From the NCBI GenBank assembly GCA_015178975.1, contig WHVD01000143.1, positions 62,001-126,000 on the forward strand: a DNA stretch of 64,000 nt. The letters run 5' to 3'. The position numbers and the translations under genes were made by a program. The notes beneath the pieces were generated by a model that was given only the letters and a program-made list of their open reading frames with translations, had not been told where the DNA came from and made no database searches. The stretch is from Hysterangium stoloniferum. Its lineage: Eukaryota; Basidiomycota; Agaricomycetes; Hysterangiales; Hysterangiaceae. Shown piece after piece: positions 7,744 to 21,166 of this stretch (its first letter is position 1; every line of letters begins with the position of its first letter).

Positions 7744-8749
7744 GTATTTCCTTCATCATGAGAAAGAGATTATTGTCATGGTATGTTTCAGGAGATAGTT
7801 GGCTTTATTGATTTGTTCAAGTGACTTAGAGAAAAATATAGCAAACCCAAGTACAAATGCTAGTATATTCACAGCAAAATATCAGTGTTTGTTATTTCAT
7901 ACTTTTGAGTGAAATGAAATTAATAGTGAAGTAGTTTGGGTATCTTAGAAACTGAATTCAGAATCAACAAGTTATTAAATAGAAGATTGTCACACCATGT
8001 ACTCTCATTAAGCAATCTGCTGATCCACCAAGAAAGTGAAGCTGAAATAAAACCCTCTTTCCACATGATATTAAGAACTGAGTCTACAAGTGTATTCCGG
8101 GAATCTGTGGAGTATTATCATGAATAGGACTGCACTTTACCTCATGTGTGTTCCCTTGTACAACAATCACTTCAAGTCAATGAAGTACTTCACAAAACCT
8201 GGAACCACATTCATCTGAGCTGGGTCGAGGATACAGGTATCATCTGGAAATTGAGGAGTGTGGGATAATGAACAAAGGCAGGAGTCAAGAGATGAGGGGT
8301 AGACAAGTCTAACTCAACATTTGAATTTGTTGTAGTGCATGCAATTGCGCAATATAGAGAGTCAGATACTTACATATAAGATGTGTTCTGGGTCCCAGCA
8401 GGTTTCCCGGTCCTAACACCAGGCAACATTATAGAACATAGTTGAACACATAGAACTGTAATATCATACTCTGTAAGAGGGATGTTATAATCATTTCTAT
8501 TATATTATTTTCTTTACTCTAGTAACCTGATATATTCTATCTTCTATTTTTTCCCTTAATTTTTCCTTATTTCTCTTTTGTTTTTCCATTAAGTTATATT
8601 CCTCAAATATCTTAACCTACTATTAGCTCAAGGCATCATGTATACTTGTGGGTGCACCAGGCACTAGAATGACAGCAACCTTTACCCCTAAACCCCAATG
8701 TGAAAACTAGTGCAATGCTCAGTAGGATGTGTAGCTTTTACCCCTACTT
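7744..8749. other. AT-rich intergenic region
   Basis: Sequence after the NLR stop. It is AT-rich, especially 8440-8640, and has no recognisable gene. Short open stretches (7936-8127 plus) lack any family resemblance. It probably holds the NLR 3' UTR followed by decayed sequence. Confidence 0.45.
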
Positions 8750-9246
8750 TTGGCTGAAGTAGTTGAAGCCTCCCTGAACTCAAACATCTCAATTGATATG
8801 AACTCTTTCCACAAAAGCCTCAGTGATCCCTTCCTCATGTTCATCCACTATCAACGGCTATCAAGGCATTGGAATATCCCTGTAAAACACAATTATCCAA
8901 CTACCCCGATAAGCTCACTTTCATTGTTGGCTGCAGAAGCATTACATGCTGCCAGACCTGCTGATGCAGTTACCTCAGCATCCACCAAAACAATCGCCCA
9001 CAAAGTTTCCTATAAAGCAAGGTCATTTTCCCATGATCAAGTTAGAAAGACAGCGCAGATGACAAGGTGGAAAAGTGGCTTAACCTTAACTACATATTAA
9101 GTCTAGACGACACAGTAGCATCCAAATTGCTATTCACTCAAGGATATTTGCAGCCTCAAAATGCGAGTCATTCTGCATCTCACAGGGTACATTATTAAGC
9201 GATCACCAGGGCTCTGAGCATTTCTTGCAGCGGATAATGGCACTTA
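8750..9246 (+). pseudogene. kre33 fragment, left half (duplicate of about 27140-27575)
   Basis: This is closely similar to the central exon of the complete kre33 gene. Shared blocks include the CCACTATCAACGGCTA stretch, SLAAEALHAA, KVEKW-like sequence and the CAGCGGAT(A/G)ATGGC(A/G)CTT stretch at the end. The reading frame is disrupted in several places, and neither the N-terminal helicase part nor the GNAT domain is present, so this is a dead copy. It stops at about 9246, inside a codon run that resumes at about 20954. The kre33 fragment was therefore interrupted by the 11.7-kb insertion after it was duplicated. Confidence 0.85.
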
Positions 9247-9479
9247 CTTCACCAATTTTAAGCCGCTTTTGGCCACCCATTTTGCCTCCGTGCTCATCTG
9301 CGGGATACCCCGCACGCGAGATACCCGAGTATTCCCGATTAGGCATTATCTTCCCACACTGGGTCGCTCCCTGGGCAAAACGTAAAATATATATATAAAT
9401 ATTTACAATATTTACACTATAATTGGGAGAGACCATGAGCACAACTTGATGCTTGACGAAACAATATTATACCTACCAA

Positions 9480-10880
9480 CTGGGGCATATCTTCAAGCAA
9501 AGTCCGAACCCTCACCCTTCTTTGGCCCATATTCTACTTTTTCATTTTATCGCTGACCATGGATACTTGCAACAGAAACGGTGCTAGTGCGATGGATTCA
9601 CACACGTATATATATGTAATCAAGTACTTAGTGGGCAGGTCACAAACCAAAATGATCTCAGCTAACATAATTAAGACATTGCTAATATTTTATTAGAAAT
9701 CCGAGTACTCCTCATCTATGCAGATGCATAAACTCAAGGTACAGCATCAAATTGCTGCATATTGCATCATTCGCTAATTTAGATCAAGCGTAGGAATAAG
9801 GTAATGTGGGATATGCACTTGAGAGTGGCTGGGGATGGATGGATTAATGGGAAGTGCCTTATTTATTTCAAGCCACTATTGGAAAAAGCCTATGATGTGC
9901 GAACACACCACCAGGGGATTATCTTTGTAGTATTTAAGACCTGATGGGAAAATCTGTCTTCCTCAAATAAAAATGTTGAAACCCATAACCCTTTACACTG
10001 CAAGCACCCCCAATGGTCTGTTTCAATATGTAGCTTGGATCAATATTTGCTGATATTAATATACTAGGTGATCCCATCTCAATTGCATTGGAAGAACTTG
10101 ATGTTCCTTGTGAGTGCTACAATTCCCTCTCTGATTTAAACTATAACAAGTAGAAATTTCAGACGAGGTCAAAGCCATCTCATTCAAAGGTAATTATTGA
10201 ATATTTTGGGAGACTTAATGTAAAAGGGCAAAGAACATTATTGTATAACACTGACTACATGACCTTTATTATATACCCAGATACTCAATTCAATCTCAGA
10301 ATCAAACATCTGAGACAACACGGGGGTCACGCAGCTTCTATGGCTCGCAGACTCCAACAGTAATCCCAATGGTCAGCACCTATGGTTATCATGGGCCTGA
10401 CATAACACTAATTTAAAAGTAATGACAGGTCATATTCCTGCCATAGTTGACCACAAGGATGGAGATTTCGCTGTCTTGGAGACCACTGCAATTTTGATTT
10501 GTAGGCAACATCCTGATTGTTCCACTACATGGCACACAACTGAACCAGTTTACGAAGCTCGCACATAACACTCAACAACAGGACAATAATTCCGCCATTC
10601 TCAGACAGCTCAGTCTCAAACATGAATTATGAAGAGAATTCACAAGGTTCCGCACAATATCGCTCAGTATGGTCATTATGGGGTGAGTCTCACTGTTCTC
10701 TTTATCAAATTAATATTTCTCCCCCTTCTCAAACTTCCTTCAAGTTGTGCCCAGAGTATTGCACCGACGGCCAATACTTTGGTCTTGGGCAGTTGGTTCA
10801 GTTGGGTCGGTTGGGTCCATGCCTATTGCTACTTCTGTTGCAGGTAGGAACTTGAACTTACCATTGTATGAAAAGCAATC
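9480..10880. other. no recognised gene, left part of the composite insertion
   Basis: AT-rich sequence between the left terminus and the 165-bp tandem repeats. Two overlapping plus-strand open stretches at 10622-10855 have no recognisable domain and are probably chance or decayed sequence. No transposase motif was seen. Confidence 0.4.
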
Positions 10881-10899
10881 TTCCCTTCATTATCAGATC

Positions 10900-11400
10900 A
10901 CCCTGCCACATTCAGATCGGCGCTGACAAAATCAACCTCACCTGCCCATTCCCGCTCGAGCCAGTCCAGCGTGAGGTTCACAAACCACAGGGACAAGTCA
11001 CAGCTCGAGTATGGGGTGCCATAATACCCCAACATGCGTGCCGCCATGGACATCTCTGTGTCAGTGTCTGCCACATTCAGATCAGCACTGATAAAATCAA
11101 CCTCTCCTGCCCATTCCCACTCGAGCCAGTCCAGTGTGAGGTTCACAAACCGCAGGACGAGTCGCAGCTCGAGTACGGGGTGCCATAATACCCCGACATG
11201 CGCGCCGCCATGGACATCTCTGTGTCAGTGTCTGTCACATTCAGATCAGTGCTGACAAAATCAACCTCGCCTGCCCATTCCCGCTCAAGCCAGTCCAGTG
11301 TGAGGTTCACAAACTGCAGGACAAGTCACAGCTTGAGTACGGGGTGCCATAATACCCTGACATGTGCACTGCCGTGGACATCTGTGTCAGTGTCTGTCAC
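10900..11400. repeat. tandem repeat, about 165 bp x3
   Basis: Three consecutive copies of a unit of about 164-166 bp start near 10908, 11073 and 11237 with CACATTCAGATC. Each carries the blocks CTGCCCATTCCC, CCAGTCCAG(C/T)GTGAGGTTCA, GGGTGCCATAATACC and GACATCTCTGTGTCAGTGTC. A partial fourth copy tails off near 11400. On the minus strand the first two copies read through as a 55-residue repeat (LTLDWLE.EWAGEVDF.SADLNVADTDTEMSMAARM). The unit length is divisible by three, so the repeat may once have been coding. No known family was recognised. Confidence 0.75.
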
Positions 11401-12615
11401 GGGTGTGAGCACATTCTGCACAAATGACCACATGCGATTGCTGCTACAGACCATGGTTTGGTGCGTGCTTGCCGCATTTGGGCTGAGCCTTGGCCTCGGG
11501 AGGCCAGTGGCACGACGAAGCGACAGTGGCATTGAAGCGGTACAGCGGGTCAGCCCCGTGTGTGTTTGTAGGGACAGGAGACAGTGTGAGGTACAGTATG
11601 TCATGTCTATCTATTGTGGGGATGATGCAGGACTGATGTGTGCCATGCGCGGTAGTGCGAGTTCAGACATGATGATGATAATCTCAATCCTTGCACTCTC
11701 ACGGAGATATATGCCATGAACACATACGTTGCCGCACGCATGGAGCAAAGCTTCACAAAAAGGGGCATCCCCGTTGTGCCATTGTTAGGTGCACACGCGT
11801 CTCACTTGCCATTTTTCTGCCCAATCTAATTATGGCTAACTACTAGTATCATCATCCTTTGTCTCCCTCCTTGTTGCAGTCATGGGAATCATCCTACCTA
11901 CTTCCAGTGTTTCCCTCCCATATTCACCTCAGCACTATTTTTGCACTTTTTTCTCCCATTCTTTGGGAGTGCCATATTGGCTTCTCTGTGGTTTAGAAGT
12001 ACCTTCTTCTTTGAGAGCATCCCTTAGTGCAAGGGTGAGCTCTGTTATACCATTTACTGCCATCGGCCACTTTTTTAGAAAGACCTCAGTGTCAGGCCAA
12101 TATATATAATATATATTTTTGCCATTTATTTTGATTTTATTTTATTTTAACTATATCTACATGTAGCAGTACAGGCATGGTGCGAGAGCAATTACGAAAT
12201 CACACTGCCACCCACACGAAAAACAGTGCGGTGCAGTAACACCGCGACATGACGTAACAGTGGCACGATGCAAACGACGGTGCCGACATAAGGCCGACGC
12301 CGCCATCCACATCCCAATCGTCATATAGTTGCGGCCGCGCAGCTATGCAATGTAGGGTGCATACATGCTGTTTTAGTATTCTTCTTAGTTTTTTCATAAA
12401 TAAAAAATACTAAATAAATATTAAATAAATAGTATAAATAGGGGGCATGTACATAGTTGGTCTTTAGTTTCAATCTCTTAGGAATCCCACTAAAACAAGT
12501 GGGATCTCCCCTGTCATTGAGCTGTCTCCTCTTCACTTCATATCTCTGTGTTTTATCTTGTGTTTGGTAGCCTTGTTAGTGTTGTCCTAACACTCAGTGT
12601 CACGTCTGCATCTGT
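11401..12615. other. no recognised gene between the tandem repeat and the recombinase
   Basis: Open stretches on both strands (11326-11604 minus, 11198-11719 plus, 11882-12109 plus) show no recognisable domain. The sequence turns AT-rich at 12100-12450. Part may belong to the gene that carried the 165-bp repeats. Confidence 0.35.
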
Positions 12616-14723
12616 TCATAAAATTAGAATCGAGATACTTTTGAGTCTAATAAATAGAAGTTTAACGCACATTAAGATGTACTCTTCAGCTATTAGTTTA
12701 TGAGCATGGTAGCTCATCGCAAAAGCTGGGTGAGTCTTCCATTCGGTGGGCCAATCCTTCAGCGGTTTGTGGAGACCTCGACTTTCATCTATATTTTCCC
12801 AATCATGTACAAATGTGAGCCATTGCTCATGCCTTGGAATGCCTTGGAATGCAGCTGGAATGCATAGCCCGGGAGGGGGAGACGGTGCTGATAAGGATGA
12901 TAACAGAAGTGGAATTGGGGTCACATTGGTTGCATTGGTGGTGGTGTTGTTGGGTTGTATTCCTGTGTGTTCACCATGCCGGTGGGAGGCTGCTGCTACC
13001 CCAGAAATTGAATGGGAGAATTCAGCTTTAATTTTTTCCCCCATAGATCTCTCCATAGAAGACCACAACTCTTTCATTTCTAAGAGTGACGCTGGGCGGA
13101 TATCCTTATGCTCACCAAGGAATGACATGTTGACTTCACGTTGAATTGGTCGCAAAGCATCACCATGCCCCTCCTCGTAATAATGGAGCTCATCAAGTAG
13201 GTATCTTATCAGAGTATCTTGCTTTTTCCCAATATTAGCTCTGATCAATCTCTGTCCAATATTTAATGAAACTTACATTCTCTCCCTCTGCCCATCCACC
13301 CCACCAACGGATTGTTGCTAGTGTCCAACGCTTTCTGACTGATGCCAGCATGAAGCGATATTGAGAGCCACCTCTCCAGAAACAGTGAGTTGAAAGGTGA
13401 GTGAGTGTGACATCAATACCAGCCCCTGTACAAAACTCTTTGATCCATTTCTGCACCACATCATGAGACATAGTAGATCCGGGTTGAACAATGCCACTGC
13501 TTCCTACAGATGGGAATAAAAAGTCCTCAGACTGCAATATTCGGCCAAATACATGTAATTCAAGAAAAGCTAATCCAGTTGCGCATGTGCTGATCCATAT
13601 CAACAGATGGTAGTTCAGGCTGTGGATATATTTCATATATATGTCCTATGCACTTTGTGTGTCAATTTCTCAAAATATATGTGACTGGGTATATACCTCA
13701 CAAATCCACCTCATTGTTGAGCTTACTCTGCCAGTTCTTTCTCTCAACAAGAGATAATTTCCAGTGTGGTATCTTAAATTCATCTTCTGTCACACACCCA
13801 AATGTGAAATGCTTCCACTTCAGCTTTACAGTCTCGAAATTCCTATTTTAAATGCCACAAAACCAGTTTACAATGGTACACATATTAATAGTGAAGAATT
13901 AATTGCATACCTGGTCCAGACAGTCCATGCAGTGGCAGATAATGCATGCCAACCCAGATGCTTGTGTAACATTTGCCGCTCATTCAAAGAGAGCTCTGTG
14001 GCATGACACAGAGGGAAGGATATTGGAAAGACACTTTGTGACCACTCAAACATGTGTTCCATATAACTCAAGCTCATGGCCCCTGAGTGTGTCTGAATTC
14101 CTTCCTCGCCATGTTTCTTGCTTGCGGCATGGAGGGTGTCCATTACATCTGATGCAGTTGCCGGATTTCCAACTGCAGTGTTAGAAGATTCATCCCACCT
14201 CCATGGCCCTCGATAAAGACCTTCACTGTCTCTGGAGGGAGAAGGATTAAAATCCATTAGTGAGCACAGTCCAACCTGGAAATAACAAATAGTTAAACTT
14301 GCAAATTATCCCAATATTTCTTGAATGCAGCATGGGCACCATCTGCTGTTGACTTCCCCAGATTATTCTCAAAGCACTTCCAGCTAATAAAACTGGCCAG
14401 TGCCCATGGAGATGCTCAATTTGGTTTGATATCAAATGCATGGGCCAAATCTGCCATAGTCCATTTCACCCCTTCCAGGCTGTCGGGACAACCTCTTGGA
14501 TTCTCTAATGTACTTTCCAATGTAGAGCCTTCAACCAATCCCTTCAACCATTCCTTTCCATGCCGGACATATCCATCATAGCCATTAGAGCTATTACTCG
14601 CCATACCATGCTTTCTTTTCGAGGCTTGTTTGAGTCATTCAGTATTGGCAACAGAGCTGCCTTTGACATTTTTTCTACAGCGCTTTCCTCGTGGTGTTGA
14701 GCAGCCAGTCATTGTAGAATGCT
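12616..14723 (-). CDS. tyrosine recombinase (Crypton-like/agaric YR family), probably inactive
   Basis: Reading down the minus strand gives a split gene of a family common in agaric genomes. An N-terminal lysine/arginine-rich piece is followed by YDGYVRHGKEWL, WRWDESSNTAVGNP and MSLSYMEHMFEWS, then LKWKHFTFG, KNWQSKLNNEVDL, YEIYPQP, EDFLFPSVGSSGIVQPG and HDVVQKWIKEFCTGAGIDVT. The catalytic core follows: LSTHCFWRGGSQYRF, WTLATIRWWGGWAEGE and, after an intron at about 13198-13256, QDTLIRYLLDEL with the candidate nucleophile Tyr. The usual THCFRRGGAQ signature reads HCFWR here: the Arg of the HxxR motif is Trp, one C-to-T change. A stop also interrupts the N-terminal piece near 14637, so the protein may start at 14604. 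It was probably the enzyme of a Crypton-like unit; whether it moved the whole 11.7-kb insertion is unknown. Confidence 0.65.
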
Positions 14724-15149
14724 TCAATAAAAGATTTACTGTGTGATTTAAATTTTGCTCCCGTGTGTCTGCATTGAGTAGTATTGTCAGATATATGTAC
14801 ATTGGGTAGATGACAAAATGAAAATGAAATTTTAACCTACAGATGAATTTCTGATGTCCAAAAGCCAACTTCACACCATAAATTAAGGACTCTGCAAATC
14901 GGTACTAAAAATTCCCAGTTGCCAACCCATACCCTGCGGGGTATATACAGATAACATAGAATACACGAATATACGCATCCTCACAGGTGCACCATCACAA
15001 CGCCAATCCTTCCTTCGATCCTGATCCCGATCCACCCGCCAATCGTTGTATGAAGTCACCAACCGCTTCCCAATACCCCCATTGCATACATGTGTCATCT
15101 TCACAGAAAATCAGTCAATACAGTTTGGTGCACACGAGGCAACCACACC

Positions 15150-15960
15150 ACTGGTTGTCACCTCACAGTGGTGTGGTGTGAAATCCAACATACTATGATG
15201 CCCAGAAACAAAATCTACCCATGTAGTGTTCTTCTGCCCACTCATCTTCACGATGTCCCAGAGTTCTTTCATGTGCCACGAGGGTATGATCTCATCTCGC
15301 GATCTGCTATCATCCGCACAAGTGATAAAAAGAGAAAACCAAAAGTGAGTAACTAGCCGACAACACAATGAGACCCCTGTCCATACCTCAGCATCAGAAG
15401 GGCCATCGTGGGAGGCAGCTTTGTGATTGTGACTGCGTTATCCCAGCGCTGGTGGCATAGGAACGAAACCAAGGTCAAGTAGGGCATCACATCTGGTATC
15501 AGGTGGGGCTAAGACAAAGACACAAGCAAAGGGTGTGTTTTCATGAGGCAGTGTGTGCAAGAGCGGGACAAGAAAAGTCAAGAGGCAACATATGATAGAG
15601 AGGAATGTATTCTCGAGGATGATCCCTTGGATGGCATGAGGATGTCGGGCAGCCAGGTCCAAGCCCACACTGTGCCGATGGATTGGCCGTATATGATTAT
15701 ATTGGACATGTGCTCAGCGTCACCTTGAGGTGAGTTGAAGATGGGGTGTGACGTCAAGTAGTCGAGCACAGTCTGTAGGAAGGAGACCATGTGTGGGTAA
15801 CTGTTGGGATCTGCTCGATTACTATTACGACGGCAATTGACGAACCTGCACATCAATACAGATTCCTGCGAGTGCCATATTAGTACAAAGATATTAATCA
15901 TGTGGGGGTAGATAAATCAATGCAGACCTTTCTCTGACGGACTGTGTCCGTAGCTGACAG
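15150..15960 (-). pseudogene. BEM46/ABHD13-like alpha/beta hydrolase remnant
   Basis: Pieces of this hydrolase family occur in the correct order on the minus strand in changing frames. They are VPVSYGHSPSEKGL (near 15,930), TVLDYLTSHPIF with IIIYGQSIG (15,700-15,790, the GxSxG nucleophile elbow), then, one frame shifted, GLDLAARHPHAIQGIILENTFLS (15,590-15,690), and finally DEIIPSWHMKELWDIVK and FVSGHH (15,180-15,300), which hold the family's Asp and His positions. The shift directly after the nucleophile elbow and missing N-terminal sequence make it non-functional. In intact fungi BEM46 is a membrane-associated serine hydrolase. It is probably host sequence captured by, or lying in, the composite insertion. 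Confidence 0.6.
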
Positions 15961-16899
15961 GCACAACCGGGGCATACCCTACAAGCCGCAGGTCAGTTTG
16001 ACAAGGGGACTGCAGGTTAGATGCAGGTACGGGATGCATAGGTGCGTGGATGTGGGTGCAGAGGTGCAGGTGTGTAGTGCTTAGCCATGTATGTTGAAGG
16101 AGGATGGAGTGAAGAGAGTCCCATAGTGATAGGGAATGAATCGACCAAGAAAGGACAGTTTCAAAGGACGAATGGGTATATGAGGAGAGGCGCGACACAT
16201 AATAGCTCAGATAATGAGGACAGGTAACTGGCAGTACTAGAGTCCCCAAACTCTGCTAGCTACCTCTCGAGTTAATTTTGTTGAGTGGTCACTCTGTGTC
16301 AGCTGGTTTTTGCAATGGAAGAGCGATGACTGCCCTGATGCACTTCCTGGTGTTAACTGGTGCACCATGCCATCCAGCGCACGCAACAAGTCGTAAAGGT
16401 TTGTGATAGATCCCCACAAGGACATCACCTACTGACAACACTGTACTGAGGTCAACAGGATAGATGTCAATGTGATAGGGTAAGAGGCAGGATTGGAGTT
16501 GAAAGAAAGGAAGTGGAGGGGATGTGGCCGGTATGGTGCCATCTTGAGGTCATGTAGCTTCCATAGTTCCCCTGATCTGGGTTTCAAGCTCTTTGTATGG
16601 GAAAAATTGCTTTAAAGAGACTAGTTCGATAGCAAATAGGTCGTAGTAGCCAAGTCCCTTGGAAATATGTGCTAATTGTACTCCACATTCTCCAAGTGTG
16701 TTGAGACACTGCATCTAGGTGAACCAGTGTTAGTCAAAGCTGTATAGTCAGACACTTTGTCATAAACCCCACATCCATTATCCAACATCATCTATCGTCA
16801 AACTCCAGTGGCTAAGGCCGAACCAGGTCAAAGAAATATGAGTGTTCTACCTCCTTGAGCCCATGCTTGATAGTATGGCTGTGGCATTTCTGGCGTGGA

Positions 16900-17640
16900 G
16901 AAAGGTGTAGTTAGTTATGCTTCAGAACGATGACAGGAAAGAGGTACATGCAGGAGATGCCACTGAGGATAGCTACTTCTATTGCTGAACATAAGCGAAG
17001 GTCATTAATATTGATACCAAGATAGTCAACAAGTATGTCACAGCCATAATTGCCATACCAATCTTTAACCGTAATAATGAAGTACATCAACCAGTCCTTG
17101 CTCCTCTCTGTGTTAGGGTTCAGACCAGACATCCACAGAATGACATCAACCATCAGTGTCCAGAGACATCCTCAGCACCATTCATGTGCAGGCGTGTCGT
17201 GGGGTTTGGGGTGAAGGTTTATGTTACAAACTGCCGCTGCACAGGAGGTCGAAGACAAGTTTGTGATTGGCATACAGCATGTAATCTACACATATCTCTA
17301 GCATGAATGCAAATACACATCAGTATCTTTGACTGTTCAAGAATTGCCTCATATAGACTCTATACTCACTAGTACCCAAAATGACCATTCAGAGATGGTT
17401 CAGTCCATTTTCCCTTTGATGAGTGGTTGCGGTAGACATAGCCGTTAGAGAAATGACAGTGGTAAATTTCATCCAGATGCACTAGTATGTATGTATGATG
17501 ATGGTGGAGTAGCACTGTGACACAAAAAAAACCCTCATAGTAGTGGTGATGTAAAAATGCACTCAGAGGTGAGGGTAAGATGTCGAGGCAGAGTGTGACA
17601 AAGTTCCGCAAGTTGCTTACATAATCAAACATACTTCCCT
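16900..17640 (-). pseudogene. decayed coding sequence of unknown family
   Basis: Two minus-strand open stretches, 17369-17632 and 16911-17153, have protein-like composition. The first includes CLDILPSPLSAFLHHHYYEG and GKWTEPSLNGHFGY, the second DWYGNYGCDILVDYLGIN. They could be exons of one decayed gene. I do not recognise the family. They lie between the hydrolase remnant and the Tc1 element, so they may be another captured host gene or part of a transposon protein. The call rests on composition alone. Confidence 0.3.
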
Positions 17641-17834
17641 TTCATAGGCTCGAGTAGTTTATTTGATTGATCACCTTTTTGCACTGAAGATAATAATATA
17701 TATTTTGATTTACAGTAAGCAAAAAATGGGTTGCAATGTTCAGTGAATTTTAACTCAAATTCTTATAACTCCAGAAATAAATTAGCTAAAATTAAAAAAA
17801 AATATATGTTAGAATGCCCTGTTTCTGAACTTTA

Positions 17835-18528
17835 CAGCTGTTCCGAGTACCAATGGCGGTGTTCAAAATTTTTAAAAAAAGTTCCGCTTTTGACCTACAG
17901 ACAAATTGTGCTATATGTCAGGAATGAGACCCAATTAAGACACAGTATTTTGGGGTGTATATGATATAGTAGAGATCTATATATTTATGTATATATTTGG
18001 CCTTATGACATCCTATTTAATATTCAGTGAGATATCAGTGCAATGGTTCCCCTGCATTCAATTATTCATATATTTGCATATAGGTTGGTGGAACTAATAC
18101 TATCTATTGTATGAAAATATCCCTTGAGTTGTGAGGCATAATGCTACCTTTTGAACAAGTTACACTACTGACTATCAAGGGTGCATACAGTAAGTAGCAC
18201 AACTTATTCAAAAGGTGGTATTAAGCCTCACAACTCAGGTAATATTCTCATACAATATATTGTATTAGTTCAACCAACCTATATTCAAATATATGAATAA
18301 TTGAATGCAGGGGAACCATTGCACTGATATCTCACTGAATATTAAATAGGATGTCATAAGGCCAAATATATACATAAATATATAGATCTCTACTATATCA
18401 TATACACCCCAAAATACTGTGTCTTAATTGGGTCCCATTCCTGACATATAGCACAATTTGTCTGTAGGTCAAAAGCGGAACTTTTTTTAAAAAATTTTGA
18501 ACACCGCCATCGGTACTCGGAACAGCTG
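17835..18528. mobile_element. 694-bp foldback MITE nested in the Tc1 terminal repeat
   Basis: The sequence begins CAGCTGTTCCGAGTACC and ends with its reverse complement. Almost the whole element is one inverted repeat with arms of about 330-340 bp, meeting near 18180. It sits in a duplicated TA (17833-17834 and 18529-18530). The other, uninterrupted Tc1 terminal repeat (around 19875-19890) shows the empty site. The TA duplication makes it a Tc1/mariner-class non-autonomous element. It has no coding capacity. The arms differ at only a few positions, so it is younger than its host element. Confidence 0.9.
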
Positions 18529-18649
18529 TAACATGATAAACAAGTTTGTTCAAAAATATTCACTCATTGTTGAGATATTAAATATTGTGTACAGGAGTAT
18601 CATTGCAACCCTTTTTTTGCTTTCATTTTATAAACATAAAGCTATGCAT

Positions 18650-19610
18650 TCTAGTACTTGGTATGACCTCCTTTAGCCTTGACCACTGCTGCAACCCTCC
18701 TAAGCATACTTTCAATCAAATTCTGGCACACTTCTGGCATTATTTTATCCCACTCTACTTGTATCCCCTCCCACAACTCCAATATCCCTCCTAGGGTCCT
18801 CTCATACTTTCCCAGCTACTTTTTCAGATGATCCCAGAGATATTTAATGGGATTGAGGTCAGGGGACTGTGCTGGCCTAGGAAGGAGCTTGTATCCATGA
18901 TCTTCAAATTAAGTTGTAGCTTTCTTGGACTTGTGCTTGGGATCATTATCCTGCTGGAAGATGATAGTGGAGGGATTCTTGCCTTCTCTGGAGTTCATCT
19001 TGCAGAATATTGGTGTATAACTCTCCATCCATCCTCCCATCAATCTTGTATACATACCCAACTCCCTCCCACAGCATGTAGCCCCACATCATCGGAGATC
19101 CACCCCCAAACTTTACAGTCTCCTTCACAAGTCTATCACTCAGACCCTCCTCTGCCTTCTTCCAAGCTCACCTCTTCCCATCTGACCCCAGCCTATTCAT
19201 TTTGGTCTCATCAGACCATACAACAGTCTTCCAGTCCTCTATAGTCCAATCCAAATGAGCCAGAGCAAAATCCATCCTCTCCTTCCTATGCCTCTTGGTA
19301 AGAAGGGGCTTCTTGGCCTTTACCACAGCTTTCATACCAGCTAACTTCAGGGTTATGAGTTGTCTGGGATGTGAGAGACTGGCTGGTAGTGTTCTGAAGG
19401 ATCTGGGTGATCTGAGAGGCATTTTCAGCCTTCCCTGAGGTGATGAGATACTGGGTATAGTGACTATCAACCTCAGAAAGCTTGGAAGGATGTCCACCAG
19501 TGGACTTCTTCAGGTAAGGATGGTGTTTGCTGTGAAGTCTGGAGATGGTACTGATATATAGACCAGTGGATGATGAAATCTGGTGGGCAGGATGACCAGA
19601 ATCCAAGAGG
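18650..19610 (-). pseudogene. Tc1-like transposase, inactivated
   Basis: The N-terminal helix-turn-helix region (GHPAHQISSSTGLYISTISR, HSKHHPYLKKSTGGHPSKLS) leads into the catalytic region in shifted frames: KRHRKERMDFALAHLDWTIEDWKTVVWSDET, then GGGSPMMWGYM, IFQQDNDPKH and QSPDLNPIKYLWD. The metal-binding set is D, D and K instead of D, D, E. Stops follow the second D block and the WDHLKK block, and a frame change separates the N-terminal third. The C-terminus LRRVAAVVKAKGGHTKY is typical of Tc1 proteins. Confidence 0.85.
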
Positions 19611-20009
19611 GAGAGGATGTATTTGCATTGAGAAATAGAAGAGGCTGTATGCTGGAATCAACAAGACTGTTGTGGTCTGTTTGTCATATGTTGAATGTTT
19701 TGAACATGTCATATGATTACACAATCAAATACAATCTAACAATGGATCAGAAACACCAGTACAACCTGCCCTTTCATATACAGAACAAAAGCAAAAAAAG
19801 GGTTGCAATGATACTCCTGTACAAAATATTTAATATCTCAACAATGAGTGAATATTTTTGAACAAACTTGCTTATCATGTCAAAGTTCAGAAACAGGGCT
19901 TTCTAACTTATATTTTTTCCTAATTTTAGCTAATTTATTGCTGGAGTTATAAGCATTTGAGTTAAAATTCACTGAACATTGCAACCCTTTTTTTGCTTAC
20001 TGTATAATG

Positions 20010-20840
20010 GTATATAATTAATAATGGGAGATTATAGAGTTGGAAAGTGTGTTAGTTTCATAACAAACCACATGATAGCCACTTTTGCCCATAATATAAT
20101 TGCAAGGCTCACCATCCAGCAGCCTCGGATGCAATAAAACTCGCTGAAAGGTTCTTTTGTATGTGAAGAGAATGAATAACAGTCAATATAAGCTACACAG
20201 AATTCTTTAGGTTGGATTTTAAGCATAAGTTGCAATTAAGTCACCTACAAGGCCTAATTAAGTTAACTGAGCTTAATTTTAAGGCAAATTTTAAGGAATT
20301 TTAAGGGCTCGCATCAACAAACCAGGTGATTTTATATTACAAAGATGGCTGCTAGACCTTTTCTCTACTATTAAAAGGCCAATTACCCATTTTATATAAT
20401 ATTTGAAGTGTAATACAGGCCCAATACATCAAATAAATTTCATTGCACGGCCTGTCGCCTTAAGCGCGCATTGAAGAAATGTAAGCTGCCCAATTTTGTA
20501 CGACTATATGTATATATGATAAATGCTACATGAAAGATAAATTAAATTCAAAATTATTTCCAGTTTCAATGGCAATGCAGTTAACTATGTGTCTCATCCA
20601 TTGTGAGATTTGAATAAATTTAAGAAACTGTCTAAATCAATATTTCTATGCATTAAAAAATCACAGCACCGACTTTGTAAAAAAGATCTAGAAAATTCCA
20701 AGAAAATTATTGTGCCATCTTAAATTGATCTATTAATCTATTCATTCATTCAATTTTTTATTGATTTATTTTTCAGTAAAAAAACGAGCCATGTGAGCAT
20801 GACTGATGGTGTTTAGGGCACAATGAAGGTGGTTAGAGTG
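20010..20840. other. AT-rich stretch, no gene
   Basis: Strongly AT-rich sequence between the Tc1 element and the right terminus of the composite insertion. TTTTAAGG-type words recur at 20250-20310 and resemble those in the terminal repeat, so they may be subterminal motifs. No coding sequence was recognised. Confidence 0.45.
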
Positions 20841-20953
20841 GGTGTTTGAGCGGGTTCGCGGCAGTTTCCGAGGGATAATCCTACACTATTCCAACTATCC
20901 CAATTTTAAGCGGTTAGCGAATTTTAACACCAAAAGGCTTAAAATATCGGAGT

Positions 20954-21166
20954 TAAGGGGACTTTATTTTGCGAGTCACTATAAAAACCAGTCGAACGAT
21001 CTTCAAATCATGTCTGACGCGCTAGCTCATCATTTCTTTGTTCTCTTACAGCCTGCGAAAGACGACGAGAGCACGTTGCCTGGGCCTCTTGCTATGTTGC
21101 AGGTGTCTTTGGAAGGAATTATCGGCAGACAGTCGATTTTAGTTGGACCAACATCAAAACCTAGAA
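20954..21166 (+). pseudogene. kre33 fragment, right half (duplicate of about 27572-27775)
   Basis: This continues the homology that stopped at 9246. It encodes ASHYKNQSNDLQIMSDALAHH, LLQPAKDDESTLPGPLAMLQVSLEG and QSIL, nearly identical to the complete kre33 gene (ASHYKNQPNDLQLMSDAPAHH and so on). It ends where similarity stops after the QSIL codons. With 8750-9246 it forms one continuous kre33 segment of about 0.65 kb once the insertion is ignored. Confidence 0.87.

What the first reader, a model, noticed from the sequence alone, without database searches (positions are those of the whole stretch)
9247..20953. An 11.7-kb composite insertion splits the kre33 fragment and carries a recombinase plus host-gene remnants
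The kre33 homology stops and resumes at the same codon region, which fixes both ends. The ends form an imperfect inverted repeat (TTTTAAGCC and CTTTTGG cores) and the flanks look like an 8-bp duplication (GGCACTTA / GGGACTTT). The right end also holds a direct copy of the left-end word CCAATTTTAAGC next to its inverse, so it can fold. No DDE transposase was found; the only enzyme gene is a tyrosine recombinase. A large, gene-carrying unit with inverted termini and a recombinase would be unusual in basidiomycetes. It could be a cargo-capturing element or simply layered insertions.
Basis: partly seen in the sequence, partly recalled or inferred. Interest (0 to 1): 0.75.

Follow-up and report, generated by a model that had tools for sequence, protein, structure and literature searches.

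The report
Gene-capturing tyrosine-recombinase transposon family, fungal
The 11.7-kb insert is a worn copy of a repeated fungal jumping gene that appears to move by a cut-and-rejoin recombinase rather than by an ordinary transposase, and its relatives carry pieces of ordinary host genes picked up along the way.

Summary
The insertion is real and is a transposable element. Its ends (window 9242-20962) recur together in 16 further places of the same 111-Mb genome (17 paired copies, 3.0-16.5 kb). A kre33-like paralog on the same contig is an empty site. One copy's empty site shows that only AC is shared. Between two subfamilies little besides the ends and a five-exon tyrosine recombinase (YR) gene is conserved; the gene is under purifying selection (dN/dS 0.16-0.23) and aligns with XerD/XerC/FimB/FimE at the catalytic R and HxxR. 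Eight of 17 copies carry the YR, nine do not. Copies hold DNA-level fragments of host genes (hydrolase and DUF6699 here; monooxygenase and P450 in others). Best reading: a Crypton-like YR family that inserts a circle at AC(TTA) and picks up gene fragments; circle and catalysis are inferred. The window copy is broken and carries a nested Tc1/mariner and a solo-LTR-like insert. It differs from described Cryptons by inverted terminal arms and captured fragments.

The parts
9242..20962 (.). whole element as inserted (11,721 bp), left core ACTTA to right ...GGGGAC
   Evidence: ends shared with 16 other paired copies; empty site in kre33-like paralog
9242..9246 (.). left junction core ACTTA, near-constant in the family (25 of 27 left ends read; 1 GCTTA, 1 lacking the end)
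9247..9548 (.). left terminal region, inverted-repeat arm TTCACCAATTTTAAGCC
20003..20962 (.). right terminal region (~1 kb), arm GGCTTAAAATATCGGAGTTAAGGGG and core AC; AATTTTAAG at 20275, 20287, 20297, 20902
12626..14712 (-). tyrosine recombinase gene, 5 exons (about 14305-14712, 13911-14233, 13697-13842, 13278-13645, 12626-13222; mapped by offset from the C377 copy; the exon 1/2 splice is not settled); two stops in exon 1, and Trp for the HxxR arginine near 13376-13378
14948..15974 (-). captured segment with alpha/beta-hydrolase (Hydrolase_4-like) remnant, legible at about 15544-15815; 90% identical to non-element locus C346:340744-341798
16069..17371 (-). segment similar (mostly 71-82%) to a dispersed gene family of the genome; DUF6699 remnant legible at 16298-16579
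10903..11400 (.). three tandem copies of a 164-bp unit inside the element
12090..12592 (.). nested solo-LTR-like insert (TGTCAGG...TCCTAACA) with 5-bp duplication CTCAG (12085-12089/12593-12597), read by eye; absent at this place from the 7 other YR-bearing copies
17713..20002 (.). nested Tc1/mariner element, TA duplication, HTH_Tnp_Tc3_2 match; holds a long hairpin (17832-18531); absent at this place from the 14 of 16 other copies in which both sides align
7768..9241 (+). kre33-like left flank
   Evidence: 94.9% match to uninterrupted paralog L047
20963..22718 (+). kre33-like right flank, GNAT_acetyltr_2 at its start

Best explanation
The insert is a defective copy of a Crypton-like DNA transposon family moved by its own tyrosine recombinase (YR). 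Proposed cycle: the YR binds inverted arms at the two ends (GGCTTAAAAT... and ...ATTTTAAGCC), excises the element as a circle whose joint reads GTTAAGGGG-AC-TTAGTTCG, and recombines that joint with a chromosomal AC, preferably ACTTA. The left junction then keeps the element's TTAG and the right junction keeps the target's own bases. YR-less copies are moved in trans. Broken elements are now and then repaired with pieces of other DNA, so they gather intron-containing fragments of host genes and spread them. Shown by sequence: shared ends, empty sites, asymmetric junctions, YR conservation and selection, gene fragments and donor-like loci. Inferred: circle intermediate, YR catalysis, trans mobilisation, repair-based capture.
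For: Ends recur together in 17 paired copies of 3.0-16.5 kb. Left core ACTTA in 25 of 27 left ends read. Right core AC+TTA in 21 of 29 tabulated, with 3 TTT, 3 ATA, 1 TTG, 1 TTC (29 of 34 right ends read; 5 set aside: 1 ACTAG, 2 cut off, 1 palindromic right-right joint, 1 TCTAA). Empty sites: kre33-like paralog; a dispersed repeat (666 pattern matches at up to 2 mismatches, reversed-pattern control 0) for C377 and C201; for C105 the four empty repeat copies printed read ACATA, ACATG (twice) and ACACG, against left ACTTA and right ACATA in the copy, so only AC is common. Between subfamilies A and B alignments cover the ends, the YR gene, about 0.2 kb downstream of it and short stretches near the right end. 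YR dN/dS 0.16, 0.16, 0.17, 0.23 between subfamilies. Profile alignment with XerD/XerC/FimB/FimE: E 5.8e-4 over 170 columns, pairing R244 with XerD R148 and H379xxR382 with H244xxR247; 8 shuffles E 0.19-0.69, reversed 0.99. Gene fragments: DUF6699 E 1.1e-7; monooxygenase E 1.4e-4, 91.8% identical to C131 with its apparent intron; a P450 piece 97.7% identical to a P450 gene at C17 that extends beyond it.
Against: No circle, excision or enzyme activity was observed. The hhalign probability is only 29% although its E-value is low, and the alignment stops before the proposed nucleophile Tyr422. Pfam and PDB sequence searches do not call the protein a YR. The four proteins of the profile were chosen from this family and 10 relatives for coverage; 4 of the 10 relatives (L091, L093, L094, L098) have His where the HxxR arginine is expected, which I take as decay. 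A DDE element with a 2-bp AC duplication is formally compatible with the junctions. The empty site of C224 could not be established. Several gene-fragment matches are below curated cut-offs (Hydrolase_4, FMO-like).
Confidence: 0.84

Rival explanations
1. A TIR (DDE) transposon family with a short target duplication, in which the recombinase is only captured cargo.
For: Imperfect inverted ends; the first 5 bases of the two cores agree in 10 of 17 pairs and the first 2 in 15 of 17 as scored (16 with C323 corrected). DDE families are common in this genome (71 KDZ matches).
Against: The C105 empty sites show that the left TTA is not host DNA. None of the 71 listed KDZ matches falls inside the 17 paired copies (coordinates compared by eye). 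The YR is the gene shared by both subfamilies and under purifying selection. The right target bases match the element's own core TTA in 21 of 29, which a DDE duplication does not predict.
Confidence: 0.08
2. Layered, unrelated insertions that only look like one unit.
For: The window copy does hold a nested Tc1/mariner and a solo-LTR-like insert, and C112, C1a and C334b hold nested retroelement reading frames by eye.
Against: C105, C377 and C224 share the same order of left end, YR, inner segment and right end, at about 85-98% identity per aligned piece, without those two inserts.
Confidence: 0.03
3. A small Starship-type cargo element.
For: YR enzyme, direct repeat at target, inverted ends, host DNA inside. 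Starships are reported in a basidiomycete (PMC13066641, passages seen).
Against: No DUF3435 match listed in the Pfam scans; the YR is internal and points to the left end; cargo is broken gene pieces.
Confidence: 0.05

Closest known systems
CryptonF (fungal Crypton transposons; Kojima and Jurka 2011, PMC3212892)
   Same: YR as the shared enzyme; short direct repeat at the termini as presumed recombination substrate; presumed circle; C-terminal GCR1_C-like stretch in the expected place (E 0.09-0.13, below cut-off); non-autonomous derivatives (reported there for animal Cryptons).
   Different: Cryptons are described there as lacking terminal inverted repeats; this family has inverted arms, its A copies C105, C377 and C224 span 8.5-10.0 kb, and it holds fragments of several host genes.
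Starships (DUF3435 captain elements of Pezizomycotina)
   Same: YR-driven, short direct repeat at the target, sometimes TIRs, carries host DNA.
   Different: No DUF3435 match; most copies smaller than the 15 kb minimum given in PMC12134995; YR internal; fragments instead of intact cargo genes.
Pack-MULE / Pack-TYPE and gene-capturing Helitrons
   Same: Copies carry and spread pieces of host genes.
   Different: Those are moved by DDE transposases or rolling-circle replication (recalled); here the linked enzyme is a YR.
KDZ / Zisupton DDE transposons
   Different: No 8-bp duplication and no listed KDZ match inside the paired copies.

Membership tests
Crypton (CryptonF) | tyrosine recombinase with R-H-R-Y | tested here: met
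   R and HxxR aligned with XerD/XerC/FimB/FimE; R244, H379, R382, W410, Y422 invariant in the C377 protein and three relatives; 6 of 10 relatives keep R382, 4 have His. Tyr by motif only.
Crypton (CryptonF) | C-terminal GCR1_C domain | tested here: inconclusive
   only Pfam match of the C-terminal piece, residues 431-474 of 475, E 0.09, 13.5 bits against a cut-off of 23; 1 of 4 aligned YRs; the GCR1_C model finds 5 places in the genome, none in this family
Crypton (CryptonF) | short (4-6 bp) direct repeat at both termini | tested here: met
   ACTTA left; ACTTA or a one-base variant right in 29 of 34 right ends. Qualified: for C105 only AC is truly common to both sides
Crypton (CryptonF) | no terminal inverted repeats | tested here: not met
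   arms GGCTTAAAAT / ATTTTAAGCC (allowing a base change) at the two ends of the 17 paired copies
Crypton (CryptonF) | YR clusters with CryptonF in a tree | not tested
   no reference Crypton sequences on hand
Starship | DUF3435 captain | tested here: not met
   no PF11917 match listed at E up to 5 or 1; HMMER filters drop most matches above about 0.1
Starship | captain as first gene at one end, large intact cargo | tested here: not met
   YR lies about 3.4-5.5 kb from the left end in the C377 copy; the identified cargo is fragments
DDE TIR transposon with 8-bp duplication | target duplication of several bp, identical at both ends | tested here: not met
   C105 empty sites: only AC shared; left ACTTA near-constant while right varies
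DDE TIR transposon with 8-bp duplication | DDE transposase encoded in full copies | tested here: inconclusive
   listed KDZ matches lie outside the 17 copies; other DDE families were not searched for in every copy

The most novel reading that the evidence does not exclude
A 'Pack-Crypton': a tyrosine-recombinase transposon family that repeatedly picks up intron-containing pieces of unrelated host genes (hydrolase, DUF6699, monooxygenase, P450) and spreads them, also on non-autonomous copies, giving YR elements the gene-shuffling role so far credited to DDE elements and Helitrons; possibly one of several such families here, since diverged YR relatives (about 28-45% identical in the C-terminal exon) are numerous.
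Probability: 0.6. Interest if true: 0.72.

Novelty: new variant of a known kind. Interest (0 to 1): 0.62.

Why it matters
Crypton boundaries are described as difficult to characterise (PMC3212892). Here ends, target core, empty sites and non-autonomous copies are all readable in one genome, so the proposed circle-and-insert model becomes directly testable. If the fragments were taken up by the YR family itself, a further enzymatic route to shuffling host genes exists in fungi.

Tried and rejected
KDZ DDE hypothesis (from the recalled 8-bp duplication): 71 KDZ matches listed in the genome, none inside the 17 paired copies. 8-bp duplication: rejected by junctions and empty sites. Searching the C377 right flank as its target repeat (checked): the hits begin in a neighbouring repeat, not at the junction; replaced by a pattern search, of which only the first 100 places were listed. 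C224 right flank: repeat matches start mostly 10-15 bases inside the query and its left flank does not match, so it gives no empty site. PDB profile search with the YR alignment gave only an amylase at E 0.97, discarded as chance. GCR1_C search of the genome: 5 matches, none in this family. P450 piece: no Pfam match by itself and PDB only E 0.044; accepted through 97.7% identity to the longer P450 gene L106. C323 was mis-scored by the script as GACAT; the letters printed read GGG-ACATA, which is what I count. One search is a hand-entered tally. In one search no sequence was printed for L114. A DUF6699 look-alike C346 hydrolase donor could not be shown to be an intact gene. Structure prediction was not obtained.
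Full report
WHAT WAS CHECKED. The window is C50:62001-126000 of a 111-Mb genome in 554 contigs.

THE INSERTION IS REAL AND HAS AN EMPTY SITE. The right flank matches GNAT_acetyltr_2 (PF13718, E 5.1e-21), as expected of Kre33/NAT10 (recalled). A second kre33-like copy at C50:57866 is uninterrupted: 94.9% identical over 1,503 aligned columns to the left flank and 96.5% over 1,771 to the right flank. It reads GATGATGGCG-CTTTATTTGCG, against GATAATGGC-ACTTA[element]GGGG-ACTTTATTTTGCG in the window. Two further kre33-like places (L048, L049) also read GATGATGGCG-CTTTAT across the site; a fourth (L046) matches only from 9 bases inside the right flank.

IT IS A FAMILY. The first 300 bases give 39 matches and the last 300 give 38, the window included and some places split in two rows (lower bounds by the tool's own note). 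I fetched 16 further copies with both ends on one contig and strand. With the window these are 17 pairs, 3,017 to 16,506 bp long with whatever is nested in them, and 11,721 for the window. One more likely pair, C46:987167-995064, was not fetched whole. Blast of the window against the copies shows subfamily A (window, C105, C377, C224) and subfamily B (C112, C1a, C532, C334a; about 88-89% identical in the recombinase region). Both carry the recombinase region 12593-14913. Nine of the 17 copies show no match to it.

JUNCTIONS. Of 27 left ends read, 25 have ACTTA, one (C201) GCTTA, one lacks the end. Of 34 right ends read, 29 have AC after the terminal G run followed by TTA (21), TTT (3), ATA (3), TTG (1) or TTC (1). 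Set aside were C530 (ACTAG), C323b and C441 (end cut off), C516 (a palindromic right-right joint) and C529 (TCTAA). C554/C554b and C196/C85 have identical flanks and are probably segmental duplicates. By base composition (about 55% A+T) TTA is expected in about 2% of sites (my arithmetic), so targets resemble the element's own core. Two copies, C377 and C201, sit in one dispersed repeat; a pattern for it has 666 matches at up to 2 mismatches and the reversed pattern none. C105 sits in another repeat. Four empty copies of that repeat were printed: GAATC-ACATAATTTCTTAAG once, ACATG twice, ACACG once; the C105 copy reads AAAATC-ACTTAGTTCG on the left and GGGG-ACATAATTTC on the right. The third base is A in all four and T at the left junction. 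So the left TTAG is the element's and only AC is common; a target duplication of three or more bases is excluded for that copy. The C224 empty site could not be established.

ENZYME. The gene lies on the minus strand with five exons, read from the C377 copy, in which no stop was met; the exon 1/2 splice is not settled. The protein has TRNFE, HCFRR, GGWAEGE and LIRY motifs whose key residues are invariant in it and in three relatives. These three were chosen for coverage from 10 fetched relatives (L090-L099); 6 of the 10 keep the HxxR arginine and 4 (L091, L093, L094, L098) have His there, as has Trp in C334a and the window. A profile of the four against E. coli XerD, XerC, FimB and FimE aligns 170 columns at E 5.8e-4 (probability 29%), pairing R244 with XerD R148 and H379xxR382 with H244xxR247. 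Eight column shuffles gave E 0.19-0.69 and the reversed profile 0.99. The alignment ends before the proposed nucleophile Y422. Pfam gives GCR1_C at E 0.09 for the C-terminal piece and a chance-level hit (Phage_P2_GpE, E 0.12) for the N-terminal piece, plus Phage_int_SAM_1 at E 0.012 for one relative; PDB gives nothing credible. Counting substitutions from C377 to the four B copies gives dN/dS 0.16, 0.16, 0.17 and 0.23; to three A copies (C105, window, C224), 0.45, 0.58 and 0.67. The gene was thus kept functional between subfamilies and is decaying inside single copies. The window copy has two stops in exon 1 and Trp for the HxxR arginine.

CAPTURED GENE PIECES. Subfamily A: window 14948-15974 is 90% identical to C346:340744-341798, whose reading frame matches Hydrolase_4 (E 7e-5, 22.7 bits, below the cut-off of 27). 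C346 has no end match, but its own gene may also be broken. Window 16069-17371 resembles a dispersed gene family (mostly 71-82%), one member of which matches DUF6699 just over the cut-off; the C377 copy matches DUF6699 at E 1.1e-7, over the cut-off. Subfamily B: 462 aligned columns of a monooxygenase gene at C131, 91.8% identical, with an apparent GT-AG intron kept; PDB match to cyclohexanone monooxygenase E 1.4e-4; the C131 gene matches FMO-like at E 1.5e-4, just below the cut-off, and NAD_binding_8 over it. The C201 group (C201, C113, C335, C554), and C475 and C79, have a P450 piece. In C201 it is 478 aligned columns, 97.7% identical to a P450 gene at C17 whose reading frame (Pfam p450 E 2.5e-12) extends beyond the piece. 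It sits inside the monooxygenase piece, where C532 reads straight through, without a visible target duplication. The kept intron points to DNA-level capture; repair of broken elements is my inference.

LATER DAMAGE. The window copy holds a Tc1/mariner at 17713-20002 with TA duplication and a solo-LTR-like insert at 12090-12592 with CTCAG duplication. The first is absent at that place in the 14 of 16 other copies where both sides align, the second in the 7 other YR-bearing copies. Hence 'composite' is right, but the core unit is about 8.9 kb.

WHAT IS KNOWN. Kojima and Jurka 2011 (PMC3212892; abstract, parts 1 and 2 of 7 of the main section, and passages seen) describe Cryptons as YR elements with 4-6 bp direct repeats, no TIRs, and in fungi a GCR1_C domain, with a proposed circle. 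The G3 2025 paper (PMC12134995, passages) describes Starships as DUF3435 elements of 15 to about 700 kb that, unlike Cryptons, sometimes have TIRs and carry cargo. The Tremella paper (PMC13066641, passages) reports Starships in a basidiomycete. The plant gene-capture review (PMC13317346, one passage) mentions Cryptons only as an order. In the listings I saw no paper on gene capture by Cryptons or on this family; most listed papers were not opened (among them PMC5753468, which names Cryptons 29 times), and subscription papers and Repbase were not searchable, so the family may be recorded there.

VERDICT. A Crypton-like YR transposon family with inverted arms and captured gene fragments. It works like a Crypton as far as sequence can tell, but one trait of described Cryptons (no TIRs) is not met and the GCR1_C test is inconclusive, so I do not file it as a plain CryptonF member.

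Noticed in passing
G000: C162, C536, C223, C36, C356, C116, C346, C43, C399, C135, C301 and others (L090-L099): Diverged relatives of this recombinase (about 28-45% identical in the C-terminal exon) are numerous; two compared loci (C162, C223) are nearly identical, so further YR transposon families probably exist here.
   Followed up: partly
C50:57866 and C50:89579 (window 27579): Other kre33-like stretches lie within about 32 kb on the same contig, so the split copy is one of a local duplicated set.
   Followed up: partly
C516:380724, C554:292414 and C554:309447: A palindromic right-end to right-end joint, and two opposed right ends with identical flanks (probably a segmental inverted duplication).
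   Followed up: no
C210:9083 (left junction, L003): The host flank itself reads TTTTAAGGGG before ACTTAG, resembling the element's own right end: a chance target match or remains of a tandem joint.
   Followed up: no
L033 (C334b), about 3.1-7.6 kb of the reversed copy: A reverse transcriptase-bearing retroelement, DIRS-like by eye, nested in this copy; Gypsy-like gag-pol frames by eye in C1a and C112. Not domain-searched.
   Followed up: no
window 17832-18531: A long near-perfect hairpin (arms of 309 and 49 nt, 94-96% complementary) inside the nested Tc1/mariner.
   Followed up: no
G000, 666 places: A short dispersed repeat (AAAATTAAGAG..TTATGAGATAA, up to 2 mismatches) is the target of two copies (C377, C201).
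   Followed up: partly
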